Part shown: one piece after another, positions 5,303 through 39,362 of the stretch | Numbering within the stretch: position 1 is the stretch's first letter | How the letters are laid out: the number at the start of each line of letters is the position of its first letter | Made by a program: the position numbers and the translations under genes | Assembly: GCA_031289855.1 (NCBI GenBank) | Contig: JAITOR010000009.1 | Coordinates: forward strand, 1-44,889 | DNA length: 44,889 nt | From: Rickettsiales bacterium | GTDB lineage: Bacteria > Pseudomonadota > Alphaproteobacteria > Rickettsiales > UBA1997 | Direction of reading: 5' to 3' | Notes under the pieces: model-generated | Seen by the model: the letters and a program-made list of their open reading frames with translations, nothing else | The model's database searches: none | What the model was told of the DNA's origin: nothing

Positions 5303-6340
5303 TTATTTTTTTAACATTTTTTTTATAATCGCTAATATTAAAACACTCCACACACACAACATAAACATCACATCTGTTGTTATTTTTGTTGCATTTTTTG
5401 TTGCATTTTCCTTATTCTCCATCTGAAGAAGCGTTTTTAAAAGTAATAATTGATAACTTTTGTTACATTCCATTAACATTCTTTCGTAAAATTCAGTTTT
5501 TTTCGCATAATACCAAAATTCATCGGATCCAAAATTTTTTCCAAAAAGAAGAGTGTTTTTATATATAGAATAACCAGAAGGTTTATTTACGAAATGCACT
5601 ATTATTGGATTTTTATATTCATTTTCAATATAATTTTTTGTAAAATTTGGATGCACTTCTGATATTTTTGTTTTATCAACAAGATCCAACATATCATATC
5701 TTAAAGGTAATAATTTAAATTTATTTGTCGAAAAAACGATATTCAAAGCATCTTGGTCTGGATACTTTAACTTTTTACCATATTTTTTTCCAGTCATTAT
5801 AAGTTTGTTTGTTATATCATCTTCAATCCACTTTTTGGTATTTATAAGTAATACACCACTATTGAAATAATAATCTGTTTTTGACAATTGTAAAAATTTT
5901 TCATTTTCTTCCATTTCTTCTAAAGGAAATCCAATATCAAGTATTCCTCCTACAGCATAATTTTCCAAATTTTCATTATATAATTTATTTATATCATCCA
6001 CAACTAACGTGTCATTATCTAAATATATCAATTTATCAATATTTGTTTTTTCTTTGAAAGGGAATAAAAATCTTGTCCATGCATCCAAATATCCTCTCCA
6101 TGTATTGCAACCTTCAAATGTCTTTTCCAGGTGTTCTTGTGGAATATTTATAAATTCGACTTTAAATTGTCCTTTAAATTTTTCCAACGATTTTAACACT
6201 AAATTTTTATCAAAATCATTTACGCCGGTTTCGAGTATATAAAAATTAACAAAAGATTTTGTGTGACTAAGCACACTATACATCGAAACCGTCGTTTCCG
6301 CTATTAATTTTTCAATAGTTGCATAATAAATATTTATCAT
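5303..6340 (-). CDS. Glycosyltransferase family 8 protein with C-terminal TM helix
   Basis: GT8 hallmarks: DKLIYLDNDTLVVDDI, YFNSGVLLINTKKW, PDQDALN. Confidence 0.88.
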   Translation of the reverse strand: MINIYYATIEKLIAETTVSMYSVLSHTKSFVNFYILETGVNDFDKNLVLKSLEKFKGQFKVEFINIPQEHLEKTFEGCNTWRGYLDAWTRFLFPFKEKTNIDKLIYLDNDTLVVDDINKLYNENLENYAVGGILDIGFPLEEMEENEKFLQLSKTDYYFNSGVLLINTKKWIEDDITNKLIMTGKKYGKKLKYPDQDALNIVFSTNKFKLLPLRYDMLDLVDKTKISEVHPNFTKNYIENEYKNPIIVHFVNKPSGYSIYKNTLLFGKNFGSDEFWYYAKKTEFYERMLMECNKSYQLLLLKTLLQMENKENATKNATKITTDVMFMLCVWSVLILAIIKKMLKK

Positions 6341-10026: not shown

Positions 10027-13000
10027 ATGAGCAAACGAAATATTAGAAAAATGATTTTAAAAAATACAATTACTTGTATTGGTTTTGCTTTTATAACTTC
10101 TTTTAATGCAAATGCATTAATATCTGGATTGAGTGGTGGTTCTTCCGGAAATACATTTTGTTCTGATTTAATTTTTGCTAATCGTGCAATTGGTGATTGG
10201 AAAGTTGATGATACTGGAAATAATTTTGTATATGCGGCAGCAGGTAGTGAAGTCTTGTTAACCAGGCAAGTAAATAGTGCATGCAATAGTTTGGCGGCCG
10301 TGGGTCAAACTCTTGAAATACAGGAAGAAACCATAAGAAATGTGGTGCCGTTGGCAAAAATAACAAATAAATCTGCTTCTGATAATAAATGTGATGTAAC
10401 TTATCATATGCCTTTGAAAGAGGAAGGTGTGGATGAGGGCATTGCGGTAAATGGAACGAGTATATTGTTAAATCCTGTTGGTAAATTAAGATTTCCGGAT
10501 GCAAATTCAGTAAATTCAAATACTTGTAGTTACAAAAGTTGTGATGCCTTAACTGTTGAGGAAATTAGAGCAATATATTATCATGAAAAAAAATCAAATG
10601 AAGAAAAATTTGAAGAATTTTTTAAAAGTTATAATGGTACGGGTACAATTATAACACCTAAATATGTAAAATATTGTGAACCAAAGAAATGTACTGCATA
10701 CAATAATCGTGTTTGTACCAATGCTACTCCTGATAATGCGAAAGATTTGTATTGTCATGATATGCAAAATCCAAATTTATTTAAATGGCTGTATGTTTCT
10801 GGAAAATCAGCAACAGAGGCAAAGTTGGATAAAGACGGAAAGCAAGTGTATCATTGTAAATTACATCAGTGTAAAAGAAATGATGCTATATCCACATTTT
10901 GTCCTACAAATTTTGACATTTTTTACAATTATACAAACATGAATTTAGCGGTAACCGATAGTTTTGGCATATCAATGTCATATGACAAATTATATGAGAG
11001 GGATATTTTGTTAAACAATAACTTTAATGCGATTTCACAAAAAGAGCTTTATTGTAGTCCGGCTCCTTCAAATGATGAAAATTGTAAAATTCCAAGAATT
11101 ATAGAAATAAAGGAACTTTCTTGTGGAACCAAGGACACATGTTCAACTTTAATGAATAATAGCAATACTTGCGACAAATATACTGGTATGGATAATAGCA
11201 TCACTTCTTCTACTGATTTTGATTCAATCAAGCAATCTTTTTCATTGCAAGGAGCGGCTTTTGTTGCTGCATATGATAAATGTATAAATGATAATGTGTG
11301 TGAAAATGGGGATTCCGTTTGTATAAATGTTAGAAATGAAAATTGTATATCTGATAAAAAAACTTGTGTTTTTACCACCGATTGTGGATTGTCGATTAAA
11401 AAAAATGTTGAACCTTGTTTGAGTGCAATTGCACAAATATCAGAGCCAAATTCAGTATCCGCTTTCTTCTCTCCATTACCGCATCCAAGAGCAATAGAAT
11501 TAGTGTGTGAAATAGATGGAAAAAGCATTGAAAATTGTAGTGTAAATGATAGCAATGTAATTACTTGTACCGTTACGAATGCAGTGGGTGTAAAAAATAA
11601 GTATGGTGCTTATTATACAAATAATGATGAATCTGATCAGGTATCTAGCGCTCTTACTCTTGAATACAAAAAATGTATAGAAGTTGGTGGAAAGCACAAA
11701 ACTATTTTAAAGAGAAGTTTATTTGGACAATTGGATTCTCCATTACCCCCAACAACAAAAGTGTGGGATAAGGTGGCAGCATGGGCGATAATTGCTGCTT
11801 CACTTGGAACTGCCACTTCTTCTTGTATGCCTGAAGATAATTTTACTGGTAATTATGAAACTTATACTCATAGATTGAATGGTAATAGAGCAAATTTTTA
11901 TAGTAATGCAAAAGATGGTTATAATCCTGAATCTCAAATGTTTTGTGGTAGCGAAGAAGATTTTCAAAAAAGATATGAAGCATATGAATCCAGAAGATAT
12001 CTTTGTGATGACTATCAAAGTGTGTTGAGTAATAATTATTCAAAACATTATGATTCCGGTTGGAGTGCCACATATGTTTCTGGCACCAGACGTACGGCAC
12101 CAATGATGGTGGGAATATGTAGTCCTCTATCTACTGACAATGCTCCCACCGCCAGTGGTTCCACCTATACATGTGGAAATGGTAAAAATTATTGTAATTT
12201 TTTTGATTGGGATAGTTATTATATAAAAGAGGAACCAGAAATAACTTGGAGCACAGAAAAACCAATTGTAACCAATGCAAATGTTAAGGCTTGTATGAGA
12301 TTTCAATCTTTGGCAGATTGGTCTCTTTGCGGTACTAGAACCACAAGAGTTGATTGTGGTATTGGGTTGTGTGAGTTTCAATATAGAGGTAAGGATAGAT
12401 GCTCGGATTTATCGCTCAATGTGTTAGAAAATTCAAATGGATGTGTTTTAGGACATGTTGGTGGAAGTTGTGTTCAAAATGTTTCAAATTCAGGTGGAAC
12501 TCATAAATTTAGATTTAGGTTAGTGAGAGGAGAAAATAGTCGTTTATATGTATTTTTGGACAGAACAACTTCCACTTGTGTTGGAAGAAATACAACATAT
12601 TTAGTGCAAAGTAGTAGTGAAATTGATAATTTAAGAGATATAGAAGATATATATGGGACATGTATTGTTACTGGTGGAATTGAGGTAAACCCGCATTTTA
12701 ATAATAAATTTGAAAGAACACAAATATATTGTAGAGACAGATTGACCGAGAGAACACAAATGAATCTTTGTGCTGATAGTGAAAATAATGCTAATGGTAC
12801 TGGTTGCGAAGGAGATGTAAATACTAACCAAAAGAGAACGTTCAATATGTCAGATTTTTATAGCAATAATCCAATTGGAGTGATTCTTGGAGATTGCAAA
12901 TCAAGCAGTGAAATGAATGTATTTGGTGATGGTAATGAAGGAAAAGTTGCCCAGAGAAAAACGTGTAAAGTTCTTTTATATAAAAGATCTCCAGATGAGA

Positions 13001-16000
13001 GCAACGAAAATTTTTCTGATTTACATGAGCAGAAAAATCTTTTTGGAAAAAATTTTAAAGGAAGATTAACTGCACTTAGTTTGTATGATGATAATAGTTT
13101 AAGCGACAATAATTGTGATGGAAAAATTACCGATGAAGATGTTTTTGGTGAATATTTATTTAAAAATCTTAATTGCGGTTATATGTTTGGTAATGATTAC
13201 AAAATTTTGCCACAAAATGATGGCGAAAATGGTATGGGTGGAAATGTTGTATATAGTTTTGTTGAGCCAGAAGATTGGTGTAAAAAGAAAACTGAATATG
13301 TGAAAGACGAAAATTCAACTCCATTTGATGAAAGGTTTGGGGCAACAGAAAAGGATTATCCTGATGGCAATGGTAGAAATCATTCCTTCCTAATAAATAG
13401 AAAATGTTCGAACTTATTGATGCATAAGAGTGTCGATGTTGATCCAATACTTAATCCGGAAGAAAATCATAAAGCTTCGGAGTGGTTACCTATAGATGTG
13501 GTTCAATATGCCGGCAACAACCAATTACAGGGCAATATTATGGAAAATTCACAATGTACTATAAATTCCGTTGAGAATTGTCGTGGATATTATAATGAAA
13601 AATATTATGAATCTGGTGGAGTGGATAGTTTTGTAAAGGAATCGCAAGGTATACCTTTACCTCTTCCAGTATCACCAAGTGTATATTGGAGATATGCAAT
13701 TAAAGAAAATATGCCCGATTTATTTTTGCCTATAATACAAATTTCGCAATATAAAAAAACTGGAACAAACAATTATTATAATTTTGTAGTTGGTGGAAAA
13801 AATCAATATGTGGATTTCTTTGAACCTTCAATAAAATTGGTGTTTGGTATATCTGATGCCTATGCTTCAATACTTTTTAATAAAAGTGATGTAACGGGAA
13901 ATATATCAACAATATATGTTGCTGGTAGTTCAAGTGAAAATATATCTGTTGGTTATAAATTTAAAAAGTTTGGTCAAATTTACCCTCAATCAAAAGGTTT
14001 AGCGTGTTTGGTGCAACTTTCTACTGATGGTTCGGAACAACAAATAGGTTGTTTAGATAGAGGAACACCAAATATAAATAATTTTATATTGGTGAGAGAC
14101 ACGGATGGGTATGTGCAGACAAGACCTTGGGTGCGAGCCTTTTTTCATAATGGAAACAATCTTTCTGTAACTGGAAACGTTGTGGGAGGTTTGAGGGCAT
14201 ATTTTTTAAAAAATAATTTGTCAATGTCTGATACCGCAGCATTAAAACAATTGATTTTTACAAATTATTCGAGAGTTGATAATACAACGTATTCGGATTG
14301 TTCAAGTTTGCCCACAATAAAAAATGAATATGCTTATTTAAATACAATAGATAATCCTCAAAAAACTTGTAAAGAATTGGAAGAAAAAATTAAAGCTGGA
14401 ATGGGTGAATATACACATTTAAATGGTGAAAATTATGCATATGAGAGTGGTTATCCCATATATATTTCATCTTCCTATTGCAGTAAAGTTCATTATGATT
14501 GTGTCAATTTTACAAAAGAAGAACAGGTGGAAAATGCTAAATCACCAAGAGATGAAAATTATTTGTCTATTTTAAATGCTAAAATAAGAAATTGTGAGTC
14601 ACAGATTGAAACCTATTGTAAAAAAACCAGCGGCAATGAAAGAACAATTCAATTGGATGAAAATAAGACAAACGGCACATTAACAAGGATAAAAGAAAAC
14701 TATCTTTTAAATACAAGCGCAAATGAAATGTGTGTAACAACTGGTTTTGAGAGGTATTTTAAAGGTGGGGTCAATGCATCTAGTGTGAAGGCGGTAAAAT
14801 TGCAATACTATTATCCTGAATTGGAAGGCATTGGAAAATGTATATTAACTAATGAAAGTAAAGGAAATCCAGCATGCAGAATAAGTGATTATTATACATA
14901 TTGTGAATATAAAGAAGGTATAGAAGATTCAACATGTAATCCATTGGTTGATGTAGCGCCAACACAAGATGATATGGAGGATTTAGGAGTATCTTCTTTG
15001 CCAAATACTTATTTTTGCAGACTTTCTGTCAAAAATTGTGTTAAAAGGGTATCTTGTGATTGTAATGAGAATGGAAATGGTGGTATAAGTAGATGTATTG
15101 ATTTGCCAGAGCAGTGTTTTAAGGGTGGTAGTAATTTGTATAAAACTCTATATAAGGGGGCTTTGAAAGATGTTACGGAAGATATAGCACGAGAACCAAG
15201 TTGCAATTGTCAACTTGTAAGTGAAGATGCTTTGGATGGAGTGGTGGTAAATTCAAACCAAGAGTTAAGAAATCCAACACCAAGAGAATTTGGTTTATGT
15301 GCCCCTTTGCAGGATTTAGATTTTTGTGAACCAGTGAAATATTATAACGAAGATAGAATTTATTTAGATGGAAATGCTGGTCAGCCATTATCATGGTTAA
15401 AAAACAATTCTCCTGGAAATTTATGGAGGACAAATCAAAAGGTTGAGGGAAGATATTATTCTGTTGATGATTTAGGACATGCTGAATTTAGTAAATCTAA
15501 TGTTTGTAAAGAAGATATTGGAAATGGAAATGTAAGTGATGAAGATTGGAATAAGAATTTTTGTTTGAATGGAGAGTATTCATATCATGAGATAACTGGT
15601 GCAGAATGTATTAAAGGCACTGATAAATGTATTACCAGTATACTTCATTCTGGAAGTTGTGGTGGTTTTTGGAAGAATAAAATTTATGGAGAGGAGGGTG
15701 ATGAAGACGCAAGAAAGGTTATACCTTTGGCCACTTGCACTTATTTTAAAACTTGTGCTCCAGGTGATAAAGGATGCTCCATTACTGGTAAAATGCCATG
15801 CGCGAAAGATAATGAAGGTTGTTCGCCTTATCCAGTATTTTTAATGATGGATAATACACAATGTGAAAGATATACATGTCCTGATGTTCGTGAAAATGAA
15901 GTTTTTATAGAAGATGAGGACGAAATAGCAGATTATAGTGAAAGTGAAGAATTAAAGGATATGACGGCCGATAGAAGAGGACAAAAACATGGTTATGCGA

Positions 16001-19000
16001 CTTGGATTAAATATAAGAAAGGAACCGATTTGTATGATTGTGAAAATGGTGGAAATTGTGCTTTTGAGATTAATGAAGCAAGAAATTCTGTTGCCACAAC
16101 AAAAGTTGGAGAAGATGGAATAGCCGATGAAGAATTAGAAGCCAACAATTCAACCACAAAATATTCTAATGTTAGGACGGGTGTTGAAAATGGAAAAGGT
16201 GATGATTTGGAAGAAAGATACGCCAATGCATGTGTGCAAGGTTTTGCGCCTGCCGGTTCTAATTTATTTTTGAGAGAATTTAATGCTGCTAATGCATTTG
16301 TTGGGATAAATGATAAATTTTCTCTTGATACTTCAAAACCTGTAAACATGATACCATACATGGTAGAACAAGATAAATTTATGAGATCTGCGCTTGGTTA
16401 TGATGTTGGGTATTATTTTTATTCAAGAGACAAAACGAAAAACGATAGCAAAATAATAAATTATAACAATTTTGTTGCTTTAACTGGATGGTCAGCATTA
16501 GAACACTTGCCAATTAGAAGTTGTAATCAGGTGGGGGAATGGATGTCTCCATATGACATATACAATATACATGGTGTGGCTGGGTATTATAGAAAGAGTG
16601 GTATTTTTGAAAATGGTGTAATTGCGGAAACTTGTGTAGGTGATTTTAAAACTTGTAAATCCGCTTGTTTAGAGACAAAAGAGAGAATAACTGATGCCAC
16701 ACCTGATATTTGTGCTAATGCTTGTATGGAACCATTTAGTAATTGTATTGCTAATGCTTGTCAGTCTAATTACACAACTTGTACGAATTCTTGCGATGCT
16801 ATAACTTCGAGTAATGAAGAAAGTGAGGATGAAGATGGGGAAGATGAGGAGGATGAGGAAGATGGTGATACACAAACTTCGGCATCAAGTAATCAAAGTT
16901 GTCAAGATCAATGTATGGTTGCAAAAAATAGTTGTACTAATACTTCACTTTCTGCAAATCTTAATTTACAAAATTTGGATAAATTTCCACAATATTTAGG
17001 AAATTATTGCGAAAGATTGTATTGTCCGGGCTATGATGATGGCGATGTTGGGTTGTTATCAATAGAAAAGTGTGATCCAACAAATACAAATATAAATAAT
17101 AAAAATAAAGATAATTGTTCTATGTTGTCAGATGATAAAATAGAATTCACTATTCCAAGTTCCCAAAGCAGTGGAAATGAAACTGTTAGATATAGTTTAT
17201 ATTATTCTAATGAAAAAAATTATGACAATTATCCACTTGGTTTATATGAAGCGGTAAATTTACTTTCATTCCCAGCATCTAATCAACCAGAAAATTATAT
17301 TGATTTAGGTCCATCTGATCCTGGAGCACAAAATACGAATGTTTTGTTTGAAGAATATAGGAATAATGGTTACAAAACTCCAAAAATTCCTTTGGAATTC
17401 GACACAAGAATAAACAATGTAATGAATAATAAAAATACCATTTGGAGACATACTGGTGGAGCAATTTGGGCTGAAACACCAACCCCTAGAAATAATGATG
17501 TGATCTCATATCAAATTCAAGGAAAATGTATTGAAGAAAGAAAATTTTATGCCGAAAATACATTATTCTTTGCTGGTTTTGAGCCGCAATTTAATAATGT
17601 AATGCAAAATTTAGGAGTTAGTACAGATAATGTTTATACTGAATATGGAGTAAATCATACCAATGTATCGAAATTTTTAAGTTCAATGAAAACAACGCCA
17701 AAAGGAAATTACATAATAACAAATCCCGAAATATCCTCTTTCTTTAAAGACCCAATGTCAGCAAATACTCAACCAACTAGAAGTTGTGGCAAATGGGGAC
17801 AATGGAGTGCAATTAAAAATGGTTGTTTAAGTGTTTGTGAGGCTTTGGATCCGTTTAGAACGACATTTAAAGATACAAACAAAAACGGATTCTTGGAAAA
17901 TTGGGAAATTACGGAAATATTTTCAAAACCAAGATACAATAGTATTGAAAATTGGTGGAGAAATGGGTTATGGGCTGAAATAAGGCAAGAAGAGGGTTGG
18001 ATAGAAAAATCTGATGGAACCATTTGTAAGGAGTCTTCTACATGCACATGTGATAAAGGTGGTGATGGAAGTTGTGATGATATAACTTTTTATAGGGGAT
18101 GGGGTGATTATGTAACAAAAATGCAAATGGTCACAAGATCTGGTTATATACAAAAATGGTCAGGTGAAATTTGTGAAAAAGGAAAACCTAATTGCACTTG
18201 TGATATCGGAAAACTTCGTAACAATGGATCAGTTGCTTGTCAAATGGGTGATATTGTTTATAATAATGATAGTTGTGATGTTGATCCTGGAAATGATTGT
18301 TCTAATATTGCTGGAAATACTTGGAGCAGAATTAATGGTGATGATATGATTTTAAACAATAATATAAGGACATATAATGGCAATAGATATGGCGATAGAT
18401 ATACTGGTGGTGCAAAATGGGGAAGATCTTTGGGTGGTTTAACCATAACTAACATTATTATTAGAGATGGTAGAAATGAAACATATGTGGCAGATGAAGA
18501 TGATAAAATTTATATAAAAGGAACTTGTTTTTCATTGGTGGGTAAAAAAATAGTGGAAAATAGCAAATGGGTGGAAGGCTTTCCAACAGATGGTGCACTT
18601 TTTGTGCAAAGTGGCGATAAAAACAATGTTTTTGAGGGTGCTCCTCATAGAGAGTGTTTGGCTGATGGAACTTGGGGTCCCGTTATTGATCCATGTATAA
18701 ACTTCACAACTTGTGTGGATTTTAAAATTACAAGCAAAAACATGTTACAGTATATGATAGATACTGAGCCTCAAAATAATACACCTTTAACTATGGATGC
18801 AAAAAATCGCGTAAATATTGATGTTAAAGGCGTTATATCGCATACACAATTTGATTTTCAATTAAAAAGTGATGAAACGGAAGATGTAAAAACCATTGGA
18901 ACGCTTGAAGGTGGTAAATTGAATTATTCTGATATATTGACTGCTCAAAGAACAAACGTACCAACTCTACCAGTGGAAATTAATTGTTCTCAAGCAAGTT

Positions 19001-22000
19001 CATCGTTTGTGGATACAATAGGATATAATACATCTAATATAGCAACCATAAATGTGAACAACAACTCTGTAAATACACCTTCAACTAATGAAATAGCAGC
19101 AGCAAAAACAATAACTCCTAAAATTGGAAGACTTTGTAATGTGGCGACTGGTGATTGGGAGCCCGGTTATAATAAATTTGAATGTAGAATGAAATCTTGT
19201 GGTGATATTGCTTATTCGGTTGGTACTGGTGATGATAGAATTGTCATAGTTGATTACAAGGCGATAGCAACTAATGATAATATAGGAATAAGTGGAACAA
19301 CTAATCCAAGAAGTATTGGTAAAGTTATAAATAAAATTGAAGGTTTATTTTACCCAAAAAATTCTGGTTATACAGGATCAGTTGAATTTGGTAATTTTGC
19401 GGATCCTAATAAACAAGTTTTCAAAAATTACGAGTTTAAAGCACAATGCCCCGAAGGTTACAAATATTGTGAATTACATTCAACGAATGGCAATATTATT
19501 TGTAATGGGGATAGCGGTGTTCCTCAAGATATGGAGACTCAGATAACTTTCACTTGTGAGTTGGAACAAGATAGTCCGTCGGCACAAGCGATATGGAAAC
19601 GAAAGGGTGAATGTGTGGCTCAATATTGTATTTGGCAAAATGACTTTGGTTCTGGAACCTATACATCGAATGCAATAGGCACAAGTTTACCTTGGAAGCA
19701 AAAACAAATGATAATGCCTTATGCGAAAGATAATACAACGTATGTGGGCGGTTTAAATGCTGTGGGTGGTTTGCCGGCTTTAAATTCTAGATATATGCCA
19801 GTTAGTAGTGATACTTCTATTGCGGATAGAGATGTGAAGAAAAATTCAAAAACTTACACACAACCTCAATATAATTATAGTTACAATATATCCAATAAAA
19901 AGACATCCGCTGTTGTGACAACACCTAATGTAAATGTAAAGCAAAATTTAAGAGCACTTTTGACGAGAAAAACTATTTTGGAAAATAATAGCAGTGGTCT
20001 ACCATTTGAAAGTTTGGGTATATATAGCCCATCGGTTACAATTTATAAAAATTTTATGGCTAATGTAAATAAAAAATATATTTTTTCTCAGTCAGCAAAA
20101 AAATATAGTACGGCGGTTAGCACTGTAAGTATAGAAAATGATACAACCACTGATAGCAAGACACTTTTAAATTATATTACTGGTGTGGAGGCTAATATCG
20201 ATTTCTTTATTGGTGATTCTTTTACTTCAACAATAAATGATCCCATTTCCAAAACAGCACTTGAGGATTTAGAAAAATTAGGAAAAGTAACTGTGGGAAC
20301 TGAGATAAGAATGGATGCTTATTGTGTAAGAAAAGTGGGAAGATACTATCCAAAAGATAACAAAATAATCGCCAAATGCAATCCTCCAACAAGTGGTGGT
20401 TTGGTTGGGAGATGGGAAGTTAATACTGACACAAACGCAAAGTGCAAAAAAGTTTGTGATTTATCAAAATTACCTTTTGATCACACTGGAATTTGGTGGA
20501 GAAGACAAGTTACAGATAATATTGCAACTGCTACTATGGGTGGAAGTGGCCAAAAGATTGGAAATTCGGTTAATTATCCGGGTATTGTGCCAGTTTTTGT
20601 TAAGGATAAAGTTTCTGCTAATATTAAAGATTACAGAAAAGATCTTACAGATAAAGCAATATCAGCCTCTAAACCTAATATAGCAGATTGTACTTCAGCA
20701 GATTGTGTTACCGCTAGAAAAAAATTAGAAAATTTTGTATTTAATAACATTACTCTTAAAGTTACTTCTAAAAGTATATATAATGAAGATAGGGAACCAG
20801 TTGTCAATGACGGATTTCAAACTGGTGCATATGGAACAAAAAGTAGATATGTGGAGTCGGGTGGTGTGGTTATTGGATATTGTGATGATACAAGAATGCT
20901 TACAGGAGATAATGTTGAATTCACATGTAGTGAAATGAGTGATGGTAGTATGAAATGGACGACAGAAAAACCCGCAGATTGTAAAACATATTCAAAAACT
21001 TCATTAGAGGGAATACCGGCCAATATTAGTCTTTGGTTACGAGTTACTGGAGACGACGACGGCTCTCAGGATGATGCAAGGGTAGATATTTCTGATAGAT
21101 ATAGTGCCACTACAAACATTTTTTATGTTAATTCCAATCATGATAAACTTCTTGTTGGTGATGTAAAATATGGTGCTTCTAATCTTGCAACAACCGACGC
21201 TACTAATTATGGTAGTACGGGTTCATCATCGTTTGGTACTTATTCGAGATTGGGGGTACAAAAAGCATGTAAAATATCTGTTGTTGCCGCCGGAGCAAGT
21301 GGATTATGTAAAACGGATGCTTTGACAGCGAATAGATATAGGGCAACTGCTCTTAACAGTGATCATTATGATGCCGTTTACACAAATAGTAGTAATTCAA
21401 CTAAATTAGCTTCTTTTTTAAACTCTACTACTGCGGCTCCTTTTACAAAGGGTGAAGGTTTATTGTATACTCAGTTTACTAATCGTGATAATGGTTCTAG
21501 TGGTTATGGTTTTGGTGGTTTTTTTGAAGTAAATCCTGTTTATACGGATACTACCGCTTACAATATGTATACTTGTGATGCCAGTGAAATAGAATATGGA
21601 GGTGATTTGGTGGATGTTTTTCTTAATGGCAATGATCGTTTTTCTGGTAAAAGAAGTGCTAAATGGTTTACGGCCAATAGTGTTGTTATTGCTAAATGTG
21701 GAGGTAAAACTGAAAATGATATGAAAAATGAAGGATGGGGTGTTCTTTTCAAATGTAACGCTAACGGAACATGGACAAGAACAAATAACTGTGCTAAAGA
21801 TAATTTGTATTATTGTGATAATGAAAGCGATAATGTATCACACGAGTCAGCGAAGAATTATAGCGGAGTTTGTTATGATGGTAATAGAAGTGAGACTTTA
21901 AATTTTAGAAGTCCTGCGAAAGAAAGAGTTTATATTGGTTTTCCAAAAATAATTGGAAATTGTGGAAGATGGAATAGAGATGCGGGTGCTTGTAATAAAC

Positions 22001-22221
22001 CAGTTTCTGCTTGCTTGGTGGCAAAAATAACTTGTGATATATCAGAAGGCTATAAAAAGAAGATTGAAAAGATAAATGGTAATGGATGGGCTAGCACTGG
22101 TGTTGGAGGAATATATTATTGGCAAGATTGCAGTAAAGTAGCAGATGATTATACTTGTAAATATTCGCAACAAGATAATTATGGTACTTGGGTTGATAGT
22201 ATTCCAGAGGGTATATTTTAA
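10027..22221 (+). CDS. Giant (4064 aa) Cys-rich predicted secreted/surface protein
   Basis: Single uninterrupted ORF; signal-peptide-like N-terminus (MILKNTITCIGFAFITSFNANA); Cys-rich throughout with recurring C..G.W..C motifs. Confidence 0.93.
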   Translation: MSKRNIRKMILKNTITCIGFAFITSFNANALISGLSGGSSGNTFCSDLIFANRAIGDWKVDDTGNNFVYAAAGSEVLLTRQVNSACNSLAAVGQTLEIQEETIRNVVPLAKITNKSASDNKCDVTYHMPLKEEGVDEGIAVNGTSILLNPVGKLRFPDANSVNSNTCSYKSCDALTVEEIRAIYYHEKKSNEEKFEEFFKSYNGTGTIITPKYVKYCEPKKCTAYNNRVCTNATPDNAKDLYCHDMQNPNLFKWLYVSGKSATEAKLDKDGKQVYHCKLHQCKRNDAISTFCPTNFDIFYNYTNMNLAVTDSFGISMSYDKLYERDILLNNNFNAISQKELYCSPAPSNDENCKIPRIIEIKELSCGTKDTCSTLMNNSNTCDKYTGMDNSITSSTDFDSIKQSFSLQGAAFVAAYDKCINDNVCENGDSVCINVRNENCISDKKTCVFTTDCGLSIKKNVEPCLSAIAQISEPNSVSAFFSPLPHPRAIELVCEIDGKSIENCSVNDSNVITCTVTNAVGVKNKYGAYYTNNDESDQVSSALTLEYKKCIEVGGKHKTILKRSLFGQLDSPLPPTTKVWDKVAAWAIIAASLGTATSSCMPEDNFTGNYETYTHRLNGNRANFYSNAKDGYNPESQMFCGSEEDFQKRYEAYESRRYLCDDYQSVLSNNYSKHYDSGWSATYVSGTRRTAPMMVGICSPLSTDNAPTASGSTYTCGNGKNYCNFFDWDSYYIKEEPEITWSTEKPIVTNANVKACMRFQSLADWSLCGTRTTRVDCGIGLCEFQYRGKDRCSDLSLNVLENSNGCVLGHVGGSCVQNVSNSGGTHKFRFRLVRGENSRLYVFLDRTTSTCVGRNTTYLVQSSSEIDNLRDIEDIYGTCIVTGGIEVNPHFNNKFERTQIYCRDRLTERTQMNLCADSENNANGTGCEGDVNTNQKRTFNMSDFYSNNPIGVILGDCKSSSEMNVFGDGNEGKVAQRKTCKVLLYKRSPDESNENFSDLHEQKNLFGKNFKGRLTALSLYDDNSLSDNNCDGKITDEDVFGEYLFKNLNCGYMFGNDYKILPQNDGENGMGGNVVYSFVEPEDWCKKKTEYVKDENSTPFDERFGATEKDYPDGNGRNHSFLINRKCSNLLMHKSVDVDPILNPEENHKASEWLPIDVVQYAGNNQLQGNIMENSQCTINSVENCRGYYNEKYYESGGVDSFVKESQGIPLPLPVSPSVYWRYAIKENMPDLFLPIIQISQYKKTGTNNYYNFVVGGKNQYVDFFEPSIKLVFGISDAYASILFNKSDVTGNISTIYVAGSSSENISVGYKFKKFGQIYPQSKGLACLVQLSTDGSEQQIGCLDRGTPNINNFILVRDTDGYVQTRPWVRAFFHNGNNLSVTGNVVGGLRAYFLKNNLSMSDTAALKQLIFTNYSRVDNTTYSDCSSLPTIKNEYAYLNTIDNPQKTCKELEEKIKAGMGEYTHLNGENYAYESGYPIYISSSYCSKVHYDCVNFTKEEQVENAKSPRDENYLSILNAKIRNCESQIETYCKKTSGNERTIQLDENKTNGTLTRIKENYLLNTSANEMCVTTGFERYFKGGVNASSVKAVKLQYYYPELEGIGKCILTNESKGNPACRISDYYTYCEYKEGIEDSTCNPLVDVAPTQDDMEDLGVSSLPNTYFCRLSVKNCVKRVSCDCNENGNGGISRCIDLPEQCFKGGSNLYKTLYKGALKDVTEDIAREPSCNCQLVSEDALDGVVVNSNQELRNPTPREFGLCAPLQDLDFCEPVKYYNEDRIYLDGNAGQPLSWLKNNSPGNLWRTNQKVEGRYYSVDDLGHAEFSKSNVCKEDIGNGNVSDEDWNKNFCLNGEYSYHEITGAECIKGTDKCITSILHSGSCGGFWKNKIYGEEGDEDARKVIPLATCTYFKTCAPGDKGCSITGKMPCAKDNEGCSPYPVFLMMDNTQCERYTCPDVRENEVFIEDEDEIADYSESEELKDMTADRRGQKHGYATWIKYKKGTDLYDCENGGNCAFEINEARNSVATTKVGEDGIADEELEANNSTTKYSNVRTGVENGKGDDLEERYANACVQGFAPAGSNLFLREFNAANAFVGINDKFSLDTSKPVNMIPYMVEQDKFMRSALGYDVGYYFYSRDKTKNDSKIINYNNFVALTGWSALEHLPIRSCNQVGEWMSPYDIYNIHGVAGYYRKSGIFENGVIAETCVGDFKTCKSACLETKERITDATPDICANACMEPFSNCIANACQSNYTTCTNSCDAITSSNEESEDEDGEDEEDEEDGDTQTSASSNQSCQDQCMVAKNSCTNTSLSANLNLQNLDKFPQYLGNYCERLYCPGYDDGDVGLLSIEKCDPTNTNINNKNKDNCSMLSDDKIEFTIPSSQSSGNETVRYSLYYSNEKNYDNYPLGLYEAVNLLSFPASNQPENYIDLGPSDPGAQNTNVLFEEYRNNGYKTPKIPLEFDTRINNVMNNKNTIWRHTGGAIWAETPTPRNNDVISYQIQGKCIEERKFYAENTLFFAGFEPQFNNVMQNLGVSTDNVYTEYGVNHTNVSKFLSSMKTTPKGNYIITNPEISSFFKDPMSANTQPTRSCGKWGQWSAIKNGCLSVCEALDPFRTTFKDTNKNGFLENWEITEIFSKPRYNSIENWWRNGLWAEIRQEEGWIEKSDGTICKESSTCTCDKGGDGSCDDITFYRGWGDYVTKMQMVTRSGYIQKWSGEICEKGKPNCTCDIGKLRNNGSVACQMGDIVYNNDSCDVDPGNDCSNIAGNTWSRINGDDMILNNNIRTYNGNRYGDRYTGGAKWGRSLGGLTITNIIIRDGRNETYVADEDDKIYIKGTCFSLVGKKIVENSKWVEGFPTDGALFVQSGDKNNVFEGAPHRECLADGTWGPVIDPCINFTTCVDFKITSKNMLQYMIDTEPQNNTPLTMDAKNRVNIDVKGVISHTQFDFQLKSDETEDVKTIGTLEGGKLNYSDILTAQRTNVPTLPVEINCSQASSSFVDTIGYNTSNIATINVNNNSVNTPSTNEIAAAKTITPKIGRLCNVATGDWEPGYNKFECRMKSCGDIAYSVGTGDDRIVIVDYKAIATNDNIGISGTTNPRSIGKVINKIEGLFYPKNSGYTGSVEFGNFADPNKQVFKNYEFKAQCPEGYKYCELHSTNGNIICNGDSGVPQDMETQITFTCELEQDSPSAQAIWKRKGECVAQYCIWQNDFGSGTYTSNAIGTSLPWKQKQMIMPYAKDNTTYVGGLNAVGGLPALNSRYMPVSSDTSIADRDVKKNSKTYTQPQYNYSYNISNKKTSAVVTTPNVNVKQNLRALLTRKTILENNSSGLPFESLGIYSPSVTIYKNFMANVNKKYIFSQSAKKYSTAVSTVSIENDTTTDSKTLLNYITGVEANIDFFIGDSFTSTINDPISKTALEDLEKLGKVTVGTEIRMDAYCVRKVGRYYPKDNKIIAKCNPPTSGGLVGRWEVNTDTNAKCKKVCDLSKLPFDHTGIWWRRQVTDNIATATMGGSGQKIGNSVNYPGIVPVFVKDKVSANIKDYRKDLTDKAISASKPNIADCTSADCVTARKKLENFVFNNITLKVTSKSIYNEDREPVVNDGFQTGAYGTKSRYVESGGVVIGYCDDTRMLTGDNVEFTCSEMSDGSMKWTTEKPADCKTYSKTSLEGIPANISLWLRVTGDDDGSQDDARVDISDRYSATTNIFYVNSNHDKLLVGDVKYGASNLATTDATNYGSTGSSSFGTYSRLGVQKACKISVVAAGASGLCKTDALTANRYRATALNSDHYDAVYTNSSNSTKLASFLNSTTAAPFTKGEGLLYTQFTNRDNGSSGYGFGGFFEVNPVYTDTTAYNMYTCDASEIEYGGDLVDVFLNGNDRFSGKRSAKWFTANSVVIAKCGGKTENDMKNEGWGVLFKCNANGTWTRTNNCAKDNLYYCDNESDNVSHESAKNYSGVCYDGNRSETLNFRSPAKERVYIGFPKIIGNCGRWNRDAGACNKPVSACLVAKITCDISEGYKKKIEKINGNGWASTGVGGIYYWQDCSKVADDYTCKYSQQDNYGTWVDSIPEGIF

Positions 22222-24970: not shown

Positions 24971-25963
24971 ATGCCTAATTACGAAGCACTGAATGTCTAT
25001 TTGAAGCAGATAACCCATATATTGGATCAGCCAGGTATTGCCGAAATTTCAATAAACGATCCAGGTGAAGCATGGGTGGAAAAAAAAGGTGATATGTTTA
25101 GAGTTGAGATGCCTGAATATACATTGAAGCATTTAAAAGCATTGGCAAGTCTTATTGCTCAGGCAACAGATCAAAAGATTAGTGAGGAAACTCCACTACT
25201 TGGTGCTACTTTACCAGGGGGACAGAGAATTCAAATTGTGATTCCACCTGCTACGGAAGCAACTTCCGTAATTTATTCCATAAGAAAACCGAGTGATTTA
25301 AAATGGTCGTTAGAGGATTATGAGAAAATGGGTTGTTTTGACTCCACATCAGCACAAGCAATCGTTGATACGAATAATATAGTGCTTTCAAGACTATTGA
25401 AGGCCGGATTGATTAAAACTTTTTTATATAAAGCAATTTTTAGTAAAAAAAATATTATTATTGCTGGTGGTACTTCAACAGGAAAAACAACATTTACCAA
25501 TGCCTGTTTGAGAGCAATTCCAAAAAGTGAAAGACTTATAAGTTGTGAGGATGCTCGAGAAATTGACTTGACCGCTTTCCCAAATAGGGTGCACTTACTT
25601 GCATCAAAGGGTGGACAAGGTAGAGCAAATGTTACGACGCAAGATTTGATTGAATGTTGCCTTCGTTTAAGACCTGAAAGAATAATAGTGGGTGAGTTGA
25701 GAGGTTCGGAAGCATTTGCCTTTTTAAGAGCCATCAACACGGGTCACCCTGGTTCTATTTCCACGCTGCATGCTGATACTCCAGCTATGGCACTTCAACA
25801 GTTAAAAATGATGGTGTTGCAGGCTGGACTTGGTATGCCACCAAAGGATATCGTTGATTACATAGAAAATGTGGTAGATATTGTGGTGCAATTAAAAAGA
25901 GGACAAAAAGGTCGAAGATTTATTAGTGAGGTTTATTTTAAAGATTACGACAGAAGCGTTTAG
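24971..25963 (+). CDS. virB11: VirB11-like type IV secretion ATPase
   Basis: Walker A GGTSTGKTT, ISCEDAREIDL, LRLRPERIIVGELRGSEAFAFLRAINTGHPGSISTLHAD. Confidence 0.94.
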   Translation: MPNYEALNVYLKQITHILDQPGIAEISINDPGEAWVEKKGDMFRVEMPEYTLKHLKALASLIAQATDQKISEETPLLGATLPGGQRIQIVIPPATEATSVIYSIRKPSDLKWSLEDYEKMGCFDSTSAQAIVDTNNIVLSRLLKAGLIKTFLYKAIFSKKNIIIAGGTSTGKTTFTNACLRAIPKSERLISCEDAREIDLTAFPNRVHLLASKGGQGRANVTTQDLIECCLRLRPERIIVGELRGSEAFAFLRAINTGHPGSISTLHADTPAMALQQLKMMVLQAGLGMPPKDIVDYIENVVDIVVQLKRGQKGRRFISEVYFKDYDRSV

Positions 25964-31261: not shown

Positions 31262-32056
31262 TCAATTATTTATAATTATCGTGGTTTTTACATTTGCTTC
31301 ATCTTTTATTTTTTTATCAAAAAATACACCATTCAATGTTTCAATTATAGGAGTAAAATCATCATTATCTCCTTCAATTTCTTTTTCCATTTCAAATAAA
31401 ATTGGAAAAATCCATTCACAATATTCAAAAAATATTTCTTTTTTCATAATGTTTGTATTACTATTTGCATAACTTTCCCCTTGTTTTATAAAATTCAATA
31501 TCTCTGGATGTGTTTTTTTTATAACTCTCTTCACATAATTAAAGTTTTTCAAAGTTACTTTTATTTTTTCCGCCACCACCATATCATGATTTATGGCATC
31601 ATTTGTAACATCCAAATCAATAAACTTATTATGTTGGAAAAATCCAATATAAGGAGGATTGCCAATTTCATTATAATGTTTCCATGTCCAATATACAATT
31701 GTCATTTCTCCAAATTTTTTATTCATTATGGAAATATTATCGCCTGTATTGTCTCCAATCATATTTTTTTCCAACCAATCATTTTGTTTTATGGCTCTGC
31801 CGACATGTATTGGTGTTAAAAATGGATGTTGCCACAAAGTATATGGTTTATCATAAGATACGAATATTTTTAAATTTGGATATATGGTTCTATCGCCTCT
31901 TTTGGTGTATTTTTTCCATTTATTTATCAAAATCTTTTGCTGTAAAATTGAATTTTCTTCCTTCATGGAGTTAACTCTTTGTCTTGCAAAATAATTTTCA
32001 TTTATTTCCAAAATAGTACAAAGTAAAATAATAATTGGTATAATAATTTTTTTCAT
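31262..32056 (-). CDS. DUF4422 family putative glycosyltransferase, membrane-anchored
   Basis: LKIFVSYDKPYTLWQHPFLTPIHVGRA, IGDNTGDNISIMNKKFGEMTIVYWTWKHYNEIGNPPYIGFFQHNKF. Confidence 0.85.
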   Translation of the reverse strand: MKKIIIPIIILLCTILEINENYFARQRVNSMKEENSILQQKILINKWKKYTKRGDRTIYPNLKIFVSYDKPYTLWQHPFLTPIHVGRAIKQNDWLEKNMIGDNTGDNISIMNKKFGEMTIVYWTWKHYNEIGNPPYIGFFQHNKFIDLDVTNDAINHDMVVAEKIKVTLKNFNYVKRVIKKTHPEILNFIKQGESYANSNTNIMKKEIFFEYCEWIFPILFEMEKEIEGDNDDFTPIIETLNGVFFDKKIKDEANVKTTIIINN

Positions 32057-32057
32057 T

Positions 32058-33020
32058 TTAAAGAAACGGAGTTATTAATAATGTGGTAGTTGTTTTGACT
32101 TTTGCACCTTCTTTTATCTTTCGGTCAAAAAACATACCGTGCAATAACTCTGTTATATAAGCAATATCTCTAAGATCTCTTTTTTCTATATCAATCTTTA
32201 ATAATTCTCTTTCCAACTCAAATAAAATTGGAAAAATCCATTCACAATATTCAAAAAATACTTCTTTTTTCATAATATTTATATTACCTAATAGATAAAG
32301 ATTGTTTTGTTTTATCATTTCCAAGTAATCTTCAAATTGTTCGGGATATACTTTTTTTATAACATTTTCAATATATTGAAAATAATCAAGTTTTTGTAAT
32401 ACTGGGCTATTTTTATAGGTAGTTTTAACATCAAAACCTTCTCTTGTGGGAAATTTTTTTGGAATCACCATATCATAATTTGTGGCCTCATTTACCACAT
32501 CCAATTCAATGAGTTTTCCGTATTGAAAAAAACCAACATGTGAAGGATTTCCAATTTCCTCATAATGTTTCCATACCCAAAATACACCAGTCATTTCCCC
32601 AAATTCCCTATTCAATAGGGAGATATTTTTACCAATATTGTCAGCAATTTTAATGTTATCCTTCAGCCATTTAAGTTGTATAGCAGTATTTTTTCCTTTG
32701 CTGCTTGATGTATTATATTCCCTATCAGCAACGGCCTTACCAAGATGTATGGGTATTAAATATGGATGTTGCCATAAAGTGTAAGGTTTGTGGTAGGATA
32801 CAAAAATTTTAATATTTTTATTATGGTTTTTTAATTCTTCATCGGTCAAATTTCTCCATTTATCGAGCAAAATTACATTTTTTAACCTTTCATTATAATA
32901 GTCTGATTTCATTTCTTCAAATTTAAATACAGACTTTTTATTTCTATAGATATCAAAAAAAGCAAAAATAATAACAAAAGAAATAATTATAATGGATAAA
33001 TTTTTTTTTAAAAAGTTCAT
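32058..33020 (-). CDS. DUF4422 family putative glycosyltransferase, membrane-anchored (tandem paralog)
   Basis: IKIFVSYHKPYTLWQHPYLIPIHLGKA, NREFGEMTGVFWVWKHYEEIGNPSHVGFFQYGKL. Confidence 0.87.
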   Translation of the reverse strand: MNFLKKNLSIIIISFVIIFAFFDIYRNKKSVFKFEEMKSDYYNERLKNVILLDKWRNLTDEELKNHNKNIKIFVSYHKPYTLWQHPYLIPIHLGKAVADREYNTSSSKGKNTAIQLKWLKDNIKIADNIGKNISLLNREFGEMTGVFWVWKHYEEIGNPSHVGFFQYGKLIELDVVNEATNYDMVIPKKFPTREGFDVKTTYKNSPVLQKLDYFQYIENVIKKVYPEQFEDYLEMIKQNNLYLLGNINIMKKEVFFEYCEWIFPILFELERELLKIDIEKRDLRDIAYITELLHGMFFDRKIKEGAKVKTTTTLLITPFL

Positions 33021-36584: not shown

Positions 36585-36746
36585 TATTAAGTCATTAGTT
36601 TACTATATTTTTTACATACAATAGGCTTTGTGAGAGTGTGCATAAAAAGACATACATTATTTCATATATTTTGGTATTAAATATATTTGCTTTTTATCTT
36701 TTGACCACTTATTATGAAAGTTATAGTATTATAAATTATTATTTTT

Positions 36747-36899
<153 letters not shown>

Positions 36900-36919
36900 C
36901 AATTTGTTTGGAGGTTTGT

Positions 36920-37822
36920 ATGAATAAATTGTTAATAAATATCTGTTGTTGGTTTATTCCAAAAAAGAAAAACAGAAGGCATTTTAGGGAAAAATATGGA
37001 AGGGGAAAAATAGGAAAAAAAATTAATGACACAGACAACAATACCGCAAGATATTTGAAGAGGGAGTTGGAACGTTTTTTTTACAAAACCAATGTTGAGC
37101 AAATAAAATATTTAAAAATTATTGCAGTTTACCATAAACCGGCTGAATTGTTTGCCAATGATTGTATTGTTCCGGTGCATGGCGGTAGAGAATGCATGAC
37201 GAAAACAATAACCACTCGATATGGAACGACAAAAAATAATTCCACTGCACAAAAATGGCTATTGGAAAATACAATCGGGGATAACACGGGGCAAAATCTG
37301 TCAAAATTCAATCATAAGATGGGTCCGTTTACGGCATTTTATTGGGTAAGGCACAATATGGATAAAATAGATAATCCTGAATATATTGGTGTTTGTAATT
37401 ATAGTAAATTTTTTCATCATTCTATGTTGAGTGAATATTTAAATTATGATATGTGTCTTCCGAGAGAATCATTGTTTAACAAATCATTAAAAAAGCAATT
37501 TTTAAAATGTCATCCACAATCGCTTTATGATGTTGGTATGAATGCTGTTAAAAAGATTTATCCCTTTGAATTTGAAAAGGTGGAAAATTTTTTTGAATTA
37601 CAATGGGGGTATTTTAACGAAATGTTTGTTTTGAGAAGAGATTTATTCTTTGAAATTGTTGATTTTATTTCGCCCATTGCAATAGAAATGGAAAAACAAA
37701 TTTCTAACGATGAAAGGAATATTGTGTTCTTTTTAGAAAGAATTGAAGCATGGTGGCTATATAATAAAACACAAGAAGGGGTAAGTTACAAAAAATTTGA
37801 AAAAATTGATTGGTTATTATAA
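36920..37822 (+). CDS. DUF4422 family putative glycosyltransferase
   Basis: IKYLKIIAVYHKPAELFANDCIVPVHGGRE, IGDNTGQNLSKFNHKMGPFTAFYWVRHNMDKIDNPEYIGVCNYSKF. GGAGG precedes the ATG at 36920; the ORF-track start at 36851 is a TTG. Confidence 0.85.
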   Translation: MNKLLINICCWFIPKKKNRRHFREKYGRGKIGKKINDTDNNTARYLKRELERFFYKTNVEQIKYLKIIAVYHKPAELFANDCIVPVHGGRECMTKTITTRYGTTKNNSTAQKWLLENTIGDNTGQNLSKFNHKMGPFTAFYWVRHNMDKIDNPEYIGVCNYSKFFHHSMLSEYLNYDMCLPRESLFNKSLKKQFLKCHPQSLYDVGMNAVKKIYPFEFEKVENFFELQWGYFNEMFVLRRDLFFEIVDFISPIAIEMEKQISNDERNIVFFLERIEAWWLYNKTQEGVSYKKFEKIDWLL

Positions 37823-39109
37823 CATGGTTAAATTTATTCTCATTTCGTGCCTTTTCTCTTTATTGATAATGAAAATACATACTAAATTTGCATACATTTT
37901 CCATAATTTGTAGTGTTTTTTGTAATGAGTTTTTTTATTATTGATGATTTTTAATTTTTCTTCAATTTTTGACAATCTTTCATTGGTGTTTTGGCTTTCC
38001 ATATCATCGTACAACTTTTTTATTCTATAGTTTTTATCTTTGTAATTGCTATAGTTGTATCCAAAATCAATTAAAAAATTAAGCATTTCGTCCTTGTTTG
38101 GCATTAAATCTTCATTATTGTATTTAAATTTATAATCATCAAAAAAAGCCTTGACATGACGATTTACACCAATTATGGTATTATGACTCCAATTTGCTTT
38201 TAAGCGAAATGGCAAAGGATTTACACAGGCATCAATATATATGGAAGTGTTGTTTTTTAATCTATCGATAGGTATTTGAAATGCTATTTCCTCTCTTACA
38301 TAGTCTCTACATAATGCAATAACCGTGCTATTATTAGGTAAAAACACGGCCTGTTGGAGGGCTGCACCACTTACGGCCGCCAATACCTTTGCTTTTTTAC
38401 ATATTGCAATTTGTTCCATAATACTTAATTTATCTGGATAAAAAATTTTAAAACCATTTTTTTCAAAAATTCTTTCAATTTGTTTTTCGTTATAAACAAT
38501 TTTTGTGGCTTCACTATTTGGAATAAGCGGTCTTTCTTTTTCGCTTCTTGTGAAATATATCTTTTCATAATTATATTTATCAGGAACATTTTGTTTCATT
38601 TTATCAAAAATATCCACAAATTTATTATTTATATCGTTGCCTGGACCATTCCACCCAAATGATGAATCTGCTACAAACGCTTCTTTAAATTGATAAATTT
38701 TATTTTTATCTTCTATCATAATGAATTGTTCTTTTGGGACAAGTAAATATAAAAAATCTAAAAATTTTTTATTTTGATTTCCTAACAATAAAACAATTTT
38801 CATTGTCTTTAAATTTTTGTATCTATCATCAAATAAATACCACAAAAAATGACACACAGCGGGTATGATATGTCCAAATGCGCAATAACCAATGTCGCCA
38901 GATGGTATAATGACAGCGGTTTCGTTTATATAAGTTTTGTCTACATTATTGAGATCTATTCTCCTGACATCTAAACTATTTTTATTTATGAAATTTTTAT
39001 TCTTATCGCAAATCATACATTCCAATATATCTCTGCCACCCCCTCTAACAAATGCAGGACCACAACTATTGACAAATAGTTTTCTTTTGGGGTCTAATTT
39101 ATTTTTCAT
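37817..39109 (-). CDS. Glycosyltransferase family 61 (DUF563)-like protein; open frame extends upstream through the CT repeat to ~39287
   Basis: YEKIYFTRSEKERPLIPN…IERIFEKNGFKIFYPDKLSIMEQIAICKKAKVLAAVSGAALQQAVFLPNNSTVIAL is the GT61 C-terminal pattern. Confidence 0.82.
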   Translation of the reverse strand: MKNKLDPKRKLFVNSCGPAFVRGGGRDILECMICDKNKNFINKNSLDVRRIDLNNVDKTYINETAVIIPSGDIGYCAFGHIIPAVCHFLWYLFDDRYKNLKTMKIVLLLGNQNKKFLDFLYLLVPKEQFIMIEDKNKIYQFKEAFVADSSFGWNGPGNDINNKFVDIFDKMKQNVPDKYNYEKIYFTRSEKERPLIPNSEATKIVYNEKQIERIFEKNGFKIFYPDKLSIMEQIAICKKAKVLAAVSGAALQQAVFLPNNSTVIALCRDYVREEIAFQIPIDRLKNNTSIYIDACVNPLPFRLKANWSHNTIIGVNRHVKAFFDDYKFKYNNEDLMPNKDEMLNFLIDFGYNYSNYKDKNYRIKKLYDDMESQNTNERLSKIEEKLKIINNKKTHYKKHYKLWKMYANLVCIFIINKEKRHEMRINLTML

Positions 39110-39230
39110 ATTATTGACAAATAAATTTTTGTCAGTTATATAATTTGTGACTTGCTGTTGTGCCCATTCAAGGTTTGTTAGATTGGAGTTTGTTGATGTT
39201 ATCGGAAAAATAACTTCGTTTTGTTGATTA

Positions 39231-39256
39231 CTCTCTCTCTCTCTCTCTCTCTCTCT
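39231..39256 (-). repeat. (CT)13 dinucleotide tract (AG on the - strand)
   Basis: Uninterrupted CT repeat adjacent to TTGGTTGACGAA, the inverted counterpart of the 36779 tract and its flank. Confidence 0.98.
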
Positions 39257-39362
39257 TGGTTGACGAAATCTAAACTCATAAAATTTATTTTATTCTATAT
39301 GGTTTCATAATACAATGAAAAAATAAAAAGTAAAATAATTAATTTTGCACTTTATATTTTTA

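What the first reader, a model, noticed from the sequence alone, without database searches (positions are those of the whole stretch)
39109..39279. GT61 gene is a candidate phase-variable gene: (CT)13 tract inside its 5' open frame
On the - strand an ATG at 39279 starts MSLDFVNQ(ER)n read through the (AG)13 tract. The GT61 frame is open upstream of its annotated Met through the same tract (…ERERESNQQNEVIFPITSTNSNLTNLEWAQQQVTNYITDKNLFVNN-MKNKLDPKRK). With 13 units the ATG frame ends quickly (…ERVINKTKLFFR*). With 12 or 15 units it fuses in frame to GT61, and with 14 units it stops at TAA. The assembled state therefore reads as OFF with ON one slip away, the classic contingency-locus arrangement.
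Basis: partly seen in the sequence, partly recalled or inferred. Interest (0 to 1): 0.85.

Follow-up and report, generated by a model that had tools for sequence, protein, structure and literature searches.

The report
Genus-wide AG-repeat switches on surface-sugar genes
A stuttering AGAGAG… tract at the start of a sugar-transferase gene very probably flips that gene on and off by slipping, and it is one of about 16 such switches, mostly on surface-coat genes, in this uncultured bacterium; some of them seem to act by an unusual route in which a short leader peptide decides whether the gene's ribosome-binding site is uncovered.

Summary
Twelve or 15 units fuse it to GT61; 13 and 14 stop early. 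The GT61 frame is genuine upstream of the annotated Met: those residues match a GT61 paralogue's N-terminus. It is not a lone locus. The genome has 16 (AG)>=7 tracts, most preceded by one conserved leader, in front of glycosyltransferases, sugar-modifying enzymes and outer-membrane proteins. The only other genome of the genus has 18, on GTs, an acyltransferase, OMPs and hsdS. Of 376 other genomes of the order, 15 have any (AG)>=10 tract, never more than three. Leader copies 97-100% identical over 80 nt carry 5 to 19 units, so the tract changes far faster than its flanks. MutS is absent from 70 of 73 family members. Two read-outs coexist: frame fusion (as in GT61), and leaders that in one frame end on the gene's own ATG, whose Shine-Dalgarno is folded into a hairpin; inferred: the leader ribosome opens it. 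The fusion type is textbook phase variation. The copied cassette and coupling read-out are a new variant. Switching itself was not observed.

The parts
39231..39256 (-). (AG)13 slippage tract, read as (ER)n or (RE)n
39257..39279 (-). leader start ATG and MSLDFVNQ codons; diverged copy of the leader ATGAARTTTAAYTTCGYCARCCC seen at most other tracts
39307..39334 (-). promoter-like TTTACT-16-TATTAT upstream of the leader; the tract is downstream of it, so unit number does not change promoter spacing
   Evidence: 9 of 12 consensus matches, near chance level alone; the TTKACTTTT element recurs in other copies
39110..39230 (-). spacer encoding the N-terminal extension NQQNEVIFPITSTNSNLTNLEWAQQQVTNYITDKNLFVNN, homologous to a GT61 paralogue
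   Evidence: score 69; 0 of 5000 shuffles reach it; other two frames 18 and 17
37817..39109 (-). GT61 glycosyltransferase, 430 aa from the annotated Met; no Shine-Dalgarno at this ATG
36701..36729 (+). promoter-like TTGACC-17-TAGTAT of the second cassette
   Evidence: near chance level alone
36747..36778 (+). leader MKFIKFNFVNP of the second cassette, near-identical to copies on contigs C5, C15, C44, C68
36779..36807 (+). (AG)14.5 tract of the second cassette
36893..36914 (+). predicted hairpin that pairs the Shine-Dalgarno GGAGG (36910-36914) of the downstream gene; the leader with 15 units stops 5 nt past the first base of the gene's ATG
36920..37822 (+). DUF4422 gene (putative glycosyltransferase, 300 aa, MNKLLINICCWFIPKKK...)

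Best explanation
Slipped-strand mispairing in the (AG)n tract switches the GT61 gene. Translation starts at ATG 39279. With 12 or 15 units the ribosome stays in the GT61 frame and makes a full enzyme carrying an MSLDFVNQ(ER)n head. With 13 (the assembled state) or 14 units it stops within 30 codons and the enzyme is not made, or made only weakly from ATG 39109 without its conserved N-terminus. The locus belongs to a genus-specific set of such switches on glycan and outer-membrane genes, spread as copies of a promoter-leader-tract cassette, in a lineage without MutS. Shown: tract, frames, paralogue homology of the extension, repeated cassette, unit number diverging much faster than flanks, gene classes, MutS absence. 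Inferred: actual slippage, expression from the leader ATG, effect on surface glycans. A second read-out, less certain (about 0.5), is seen at about seven loci including 36779-37822: in one frame the leader ends on the gene's ATG (ATGAATAA or ATGA), and the gene's Shine-Dalgarno lies in a hairpin that the leader ribosome would open.
For: Frames. N-terminal homology upstream of the annotated Met. Leader motif at 14 places. Upstream 80 nt differ by 0-2 bases among copies with 5, 13, 14, 16 and 19 units. Gene classes: GT61, GT8, GT11, DUF4422, FkbM and other methyltransferases, hexapeptide transferase, Opacity-type OMPs with (CT)n in the signal-peptide region; in the sister GT11, GT8, acyltransferase, OMP and hsdS, where 29 or 32 units give 432 aa and 30 give 231. 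Genus restriction. MutS_V in only 3 of 73 family members, none of them in this genus. Coupling: the leader reaches the gene start in 7 of 8 loci (P 0.018 by shuffling; one of the 7 is the GT61 fusion); Shine-Dalgarno unpaired 0.00-0.06 at six own loci against a median of 0.49 in 31 control genes (P 0.0002) and 0.00 in the sister locus L108.
Against: No read-level or strain-level length variation could be examined. The leader ATGs lack a Shine-Dalgarno. Two cassette copies have a broken leader (C2: in-frame stop; C44 copy at 12687: ATG lost), and at C44:11544 no frame reaches the gene. The open GT61 spacer alone is weak evidence (P 0.10). Coupled genes have good Shine-Dalgarnos that might work without the leader. 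Several coupled loci are paralogues, so they are not independent tests.
Confidence: 0.83

Rival explanations
1. The tract is a passive microsatellite in an untranslated leader: it drifts in length because mismatch repair is missing, and GT61 is always made from ATG 39109.
For: MutS is missing in 70 of 73 family members; leader ATGs have no Shine-Dalgarno; the GT61 Pfam domain starts well inside the 430-aa form.
Against: The other family members also lack MutS yet have no tracts. Tracts sit at 5' ends of surface genes and inside hsdS, not at random. ATG 39109 has no Shine-Dalgarno and skips a conserved N-terminal motif. In C53 and several sister loci the first in-frame ATG lies 250-310 nt past the tract, so the tract-bearing leader is the only plausible start.
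Confidence: 0.08
2. The tract tunes expression through length, not frame: it is a 5'-UTR or promoter spacer, or a purine tract acting on ribosome loading or transcription termination.
For: Most downstream genes have their own Shine-Dalgarno and ATG. A terminator-like hairpin lies in the spacer at 36840-36855, so leader translation could also act by attenuation there.
Against: The tract lies downstream of the promoter-like elements. Fusion loci have no other good start. One frame reaching the gene and the paired Shine-Dalgarno are both beyond chance. The terminator-like hairpin is missing in the C24 copy because of a 30-nt deletion.
Confidence: 0.07
3. The frame break is an assembly or sequencing error, or GT61 is a pseudogene.
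For: The genome is a 75-contig draft, about 80% complete; several contigs end inside or beside such tracts.
Against: The tract and leader recur at many loci in two species; the GT61 ORF is intact and its extension is conserved. The unit number itself may still be a consensus of a mixture.
Confidence: 0.02

Closest known systems
Phase-variable glycosyltransferase genes with intragenic repeats (Haemophilus influenzae, PMC2651432; Histophilus somni lob genes, PMC3339403)
   Same: Repeat at or near the 5' end of a surface-glycan glycosyltransferase gene; frame depends on unit number
   Different: Those are mainly longer-unit repeats in Pasteurellaceae; here AG dinucleotides in an uncultured alphaproteobacterium, set in a leader copied to many genes
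Helicobacter pylori CT-repeat outer-membrane genes (oipA/hopH, hopZ, sabA; PMC3960876)
   Same: CT dinucleotide tract in the 5' coding region of OMP genes; C10 and C55 loci here read (SL)n in the signal-peptide region
   Different: Unrelated OMP families (Opacity/OMP_b-brl type); in this genome the same repeat, in the opposite orientation, also governs enzymes
Phase-variable type I restriction hsdS
   Same: Sister genome: (AG)30 between the two halves of hsdS switches between 231 and 432 aa
   Different: Found in the sister genome only, not in this window
Translational coupling of overlapping genes by stop/start overlap (criteria in PMC3711429)
   Same: Leader stop overlaps the gene's ATG; Shine-Dalgarno predicted to be folded away
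   Different: Here the upstream ORF's frame is set by a slippage tract, so coupling would be heritable and reversible
(AG)n repeats in blood-parasitic Mycoplasma, Rhizobiales and Rickettsiales (PMC4516964)
   Same: AG dinucleotide repeats enriched in small-genome host-associated bacteria
   Different: Its gene-function analysis, as given in the abstract, rests on (AG)3; here the tracts are mostly 9 to 32 units at gene starts

Membership tests
Simple-sequence contingency (phase-variable) locus | Long perfect repeat within or just 5' of the ORF | tested here: met
Simple-sequence contingency (phase-variable) locus | Unit changes alternate in-frame and out-of-frame states | tested here: met
   12/15 in frame, 13 and 14 not
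Simple-sequence contingency (phase-variable) locus | Tract length hypervariable relative to flanks, between cells or strains | tested here: inconclusive
   Seen among paralogous copies; same-locus variation between strains or reads was not available
Simple-sequence contingency (phase-variable) locus | Set enriched for surface-modifying or restriction-modification genes | tested here: met
   (by inspection of tract-linked genes; no formal enrichment test)
Simple-sequence contingency (phase-variable) locus | Reversible high-frequency switching of expression in clones | not testable with these tools
   No reads, no culture
GT61 glycosyltransferase | Pfam Glyco_transf_61 above the curated cut-off | tested here: met
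   54 bits, cut-off 27
Translationally coupled gene pair (36747-37822 and other loci) | Upstream ORF stop overlaps or adjoins the downstream start in one repeat state | tested here: met
Translationally coupled gene pair (36747-37822 and other loci) | Downstream Shine-Dalgarno sequestered in secondary structure | tested here: met
   (prediction only)
Translationally coupled gene pair (36747-37822 and other loci) | Downstream expression depends on upstream translation | not testable with these tools
   needs a reporter assay
Translationally coupled gene pair | Applies to the GT61 locus of the finding | tested here: not met
   GT61 is a frame fusion; no Shine-Dalgarno at 39109

The most novel reading that the evidence does not exclude
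A copied promoter-leader-(AG)n cassette converts unrelated genes into switches by tract-length-gated translational coupling: the unit number decides whether a small leader ORF ends just after the tract (Shine-Dalgarno hairpin closed), inside the hairpin (possible intermediate) or on the gene's own ATG (hairpin open). The protein itself is unchanged, and the cassette plus a shared 25-residue head has been combined with many different catalytic domains.
Probability: 0.45. Interest if true: 0.75.

Novelty: new variant of a known kind. Interest (0 to 1): 0.62.

Why it matters
It predicts a large, genus-specific repertoire of surface-glycan and outer-membrane switches in an uncultured, small-genome alphaproteobacterium (probably a host-associated lineage). 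If the coupling read-out holds, it is a portable way to make any gene phase-variable without altering its protein. It also warns that gene callers and MAG assemblies will split or misstart such genes, and that long reads could read the cell-by-cell states directly.

Tried and rejected
Exact leader motif in genome contigs: nine scattered hits in unrelated phyla, judged chance; nothing from this lineage. 16S rRNA is not in the draft, so there is no name for the organism. Alphaproteobacteria is inferred from MetRS (best PDB sequence 4dlp, which I take from memory to be a Brucella enzyme) and VirB11 (the best plasmid hits listed are all Mesorhizobium, Ensifer, Neorhizobium, Brucella or Agrobacterium). 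Promoter-spacing switching was rejected because the tract lies downstream of the promoter-like elements. The open GT61 spacer alone was not accepted as proof (P 0.10) and was replaced by the homology test. MutS loss as sole cause was rejected, because relatives lacking MutS have no tracts.

Full report
OBSERVATION. The minus strand carries a perfect (AG)13 at 39231-39256. ATG 39279 reads MSLDFVNQ(ER)n; at 13 units it ends after 26 codons, at 14 after 17, at 15 (and therefore 12) it runs on to the GT61 stop, 488 codons. The GT61 gene itself scores 54 bits against Pfam Glyco_transf_61.

IS THE UPSTREAM FRAME REAL? The spacer between tract and annotated Met is open in the GT61 frame, but by shuffling that has P 0.10, so alone it proves little. 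The stronger test is homology. The 40 residues upstream of the Met include NLTNLEWAQQQVTNYITDKNLFVN, which aligns with NTTMEKWEKSQTTNYLANKDLFVN at the start of a GT61 paralogue on contig C75. The score is 69, no shuffle in 5000 reaches it, and the other two frames score 18 and 17. No ATG, GTG or TTG lies in that frame between the tract and the annotated Met (read), and the annotated Met has no Shine-Dalgarno. The full enzyme therefore needs the leader start and a tract of 3k units.

A GENOME-WIDE SET. The window's own genome (0.89 Mb, 75 contigs, about 80% complete) has 16 AG tracts of at least 7 units, and 14 places match TTCGTCAACCNAGAGAG with up to two changes, against none for the reversed pattern. 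Most are preceded by ATG-AAR-TTT-AAY-TTC-GYC-ARC-CC, i.e. MKFNF(V/A)(N/S)P(ER)n. Behind the tracts stand DUF4422 genes, a hexapeptide transferase, an FkbM methyltransferase, a gene with an isochorismatase-type domain and OMPs. Five more gene-side contig ends carry the same Shine-Dalgarno/start segment, on GT8 (two), GT11, GT61 and a methyltransferase-like gene; contigs break at the repeated cassette. In C10 and C55 the tract is read as CT, giving (SL)n in the signal-peptide region of Opacity/OMP_b-brl-type proteins; one added unit puts each in frame.

SISTER SPECIES AND RELATIVES. The only other genome of the genus has 18 tracts; several share a different leader, M(I/L/V)SQKR. Targets are GT11, GT8, a methyltransferase, an acyltransferase (ON), OMPs and an hsdS in which 29 or 32 units give 432 aa and 30 give 231. 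Across 378 genomes of the order, these two have 15 and 16 tracts of at least 10 units; 15 others have one to three; the rest none. MutS_V is found in only 3 of 73 family members and in neither genome of this genus. Loss of mismatch repair therefore looks older than the tracts: a permissive background, not the cause. Both genus genomes are incomplete drafts, but the near-complete relatives lack it too.

TRACT VERSUS FLANKS. Upstream 80 nt differ by 0-2 bases among the C5, C15, C44 (12687), C68 and C50 (36779) copies, which have 5, 13, 19, 16 and 14 units. Flanks nearly frozen and unit number scattered is what slippage predicts. This compares paralogues, not strains.

TWO READ-OUTS. (A) Fusion: GT61 here, C53 (DUF4422, no ATG of its own for about 300 nt), C15, the CT-tract OMPs, and most sister loci. 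(B) Coupling: at C50 36779, C24, C26, C46, C61, C75 and sister L108 the leader in one state stops at +1 or +5 relative to the gene's ATG (ATGA or ATGAATAA); in another it stops well upstream; in several a third state stops 13-23 nt before the ATG, inside the hairpin described next. C15 has one coupled and one fused state. The leader reaches the start in 7 of 8 loci where 4.2 are expected (P 0.018). Predicted folding pairs the Shine-Dalgarno almost completely at six own loci (unpaired 0.00-0.06) and at L108 (0.00); 31 control genes have a median of 0.49 (P 0.0002); against shuffled upstream sequence the combined P is 0.0005, carried mainly by C26, C46 and L108. At the one locus where no frame reaches the gene (C44:11544) the Shine-Dalgarno is 0.63 unpaired. 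Coupling is thus well motivated but not shown; several of these loci are paralogues.

STATE OF THE ASSEMBLY. By my count no own locus is fully ON at its assembled length; in the sister two (L110, L111) are clearly ON and two depend on which ATG is used. Fewer than one third seem ON. This may be biology or a property of consensus assembly.

COMPARISON. Repeat-driven switching of glycosyltransferases, OMPs and restriction genes is well known (PMC2651432, PMC3339403, PMC3960876; overview of phasomes PMC6321876), so the GT61 locus is a new member of that kind. What I did not find in the searched library is a cassette copied to many genes whose tract decides translational coupling; absence from these few searches is weak evidence. 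That is why I rate the whole a new variant of a known kind.

LIMITS. The genome-size pattern of the order resembles Rickettsiales, but that is a guess.

Noticed in passing
window 36779-36807 and 36920-37822: Second (AG)14.5 cassette 5' of a DUF4422 gene on the plus strand; the two tract-bearing genes converge tail to tail with a few bases of overlap (37817-37822).
   Followed up: yes
L098 5155-5214 (sister genome C18): (AG)30 inside hsdS: 29 or 32 units give a 432-aa two-domain protein, 30 units 231 aa; a likely phase-variable type I restriction specificity.
   Followed up: partly
C20, C26, C40, C44, C45, C46, C50, C55 (e.g. L151, L155, L157, L159, L161, L163, L165, L171): A similar ~25-residue head (MNKLLINICCWFIPKKKN..HFRE), mostly with the same 5' segment, is joined to GT8, GT11, GT61, DUF4422, methyltransferase-like and unknown bodies, as if heads and bodies had been exchanged.
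   Followed up: partly
window 36840-36855: Terminator-like hairpin followed by a T-rich run, inside the leader spacer between tract and gene; could give attenuation; lost by a 30-nt deletion in the C24 copy.
   Followed up: no
genome-wide, G000 and G001: Assembled tract lengths put fewer than one third of loci in the ON frame (none clearly in G000).
   Followed up: partly
73 genomes of the family: MutS_V domain missing in 70 of 73 members, although most have no long AG tracts.
   Followed up: partly
window 10027-22221: 4064-codon ORF with no Pfam match, not far from a VirB11-type ATPase gene at 24971-25963.
   Followed up: no
window 31262-33020: Two adjacent DUF4422 genes without any AG tract; a GT8 gene at 5303-6340 also has none.
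   Followed up: no
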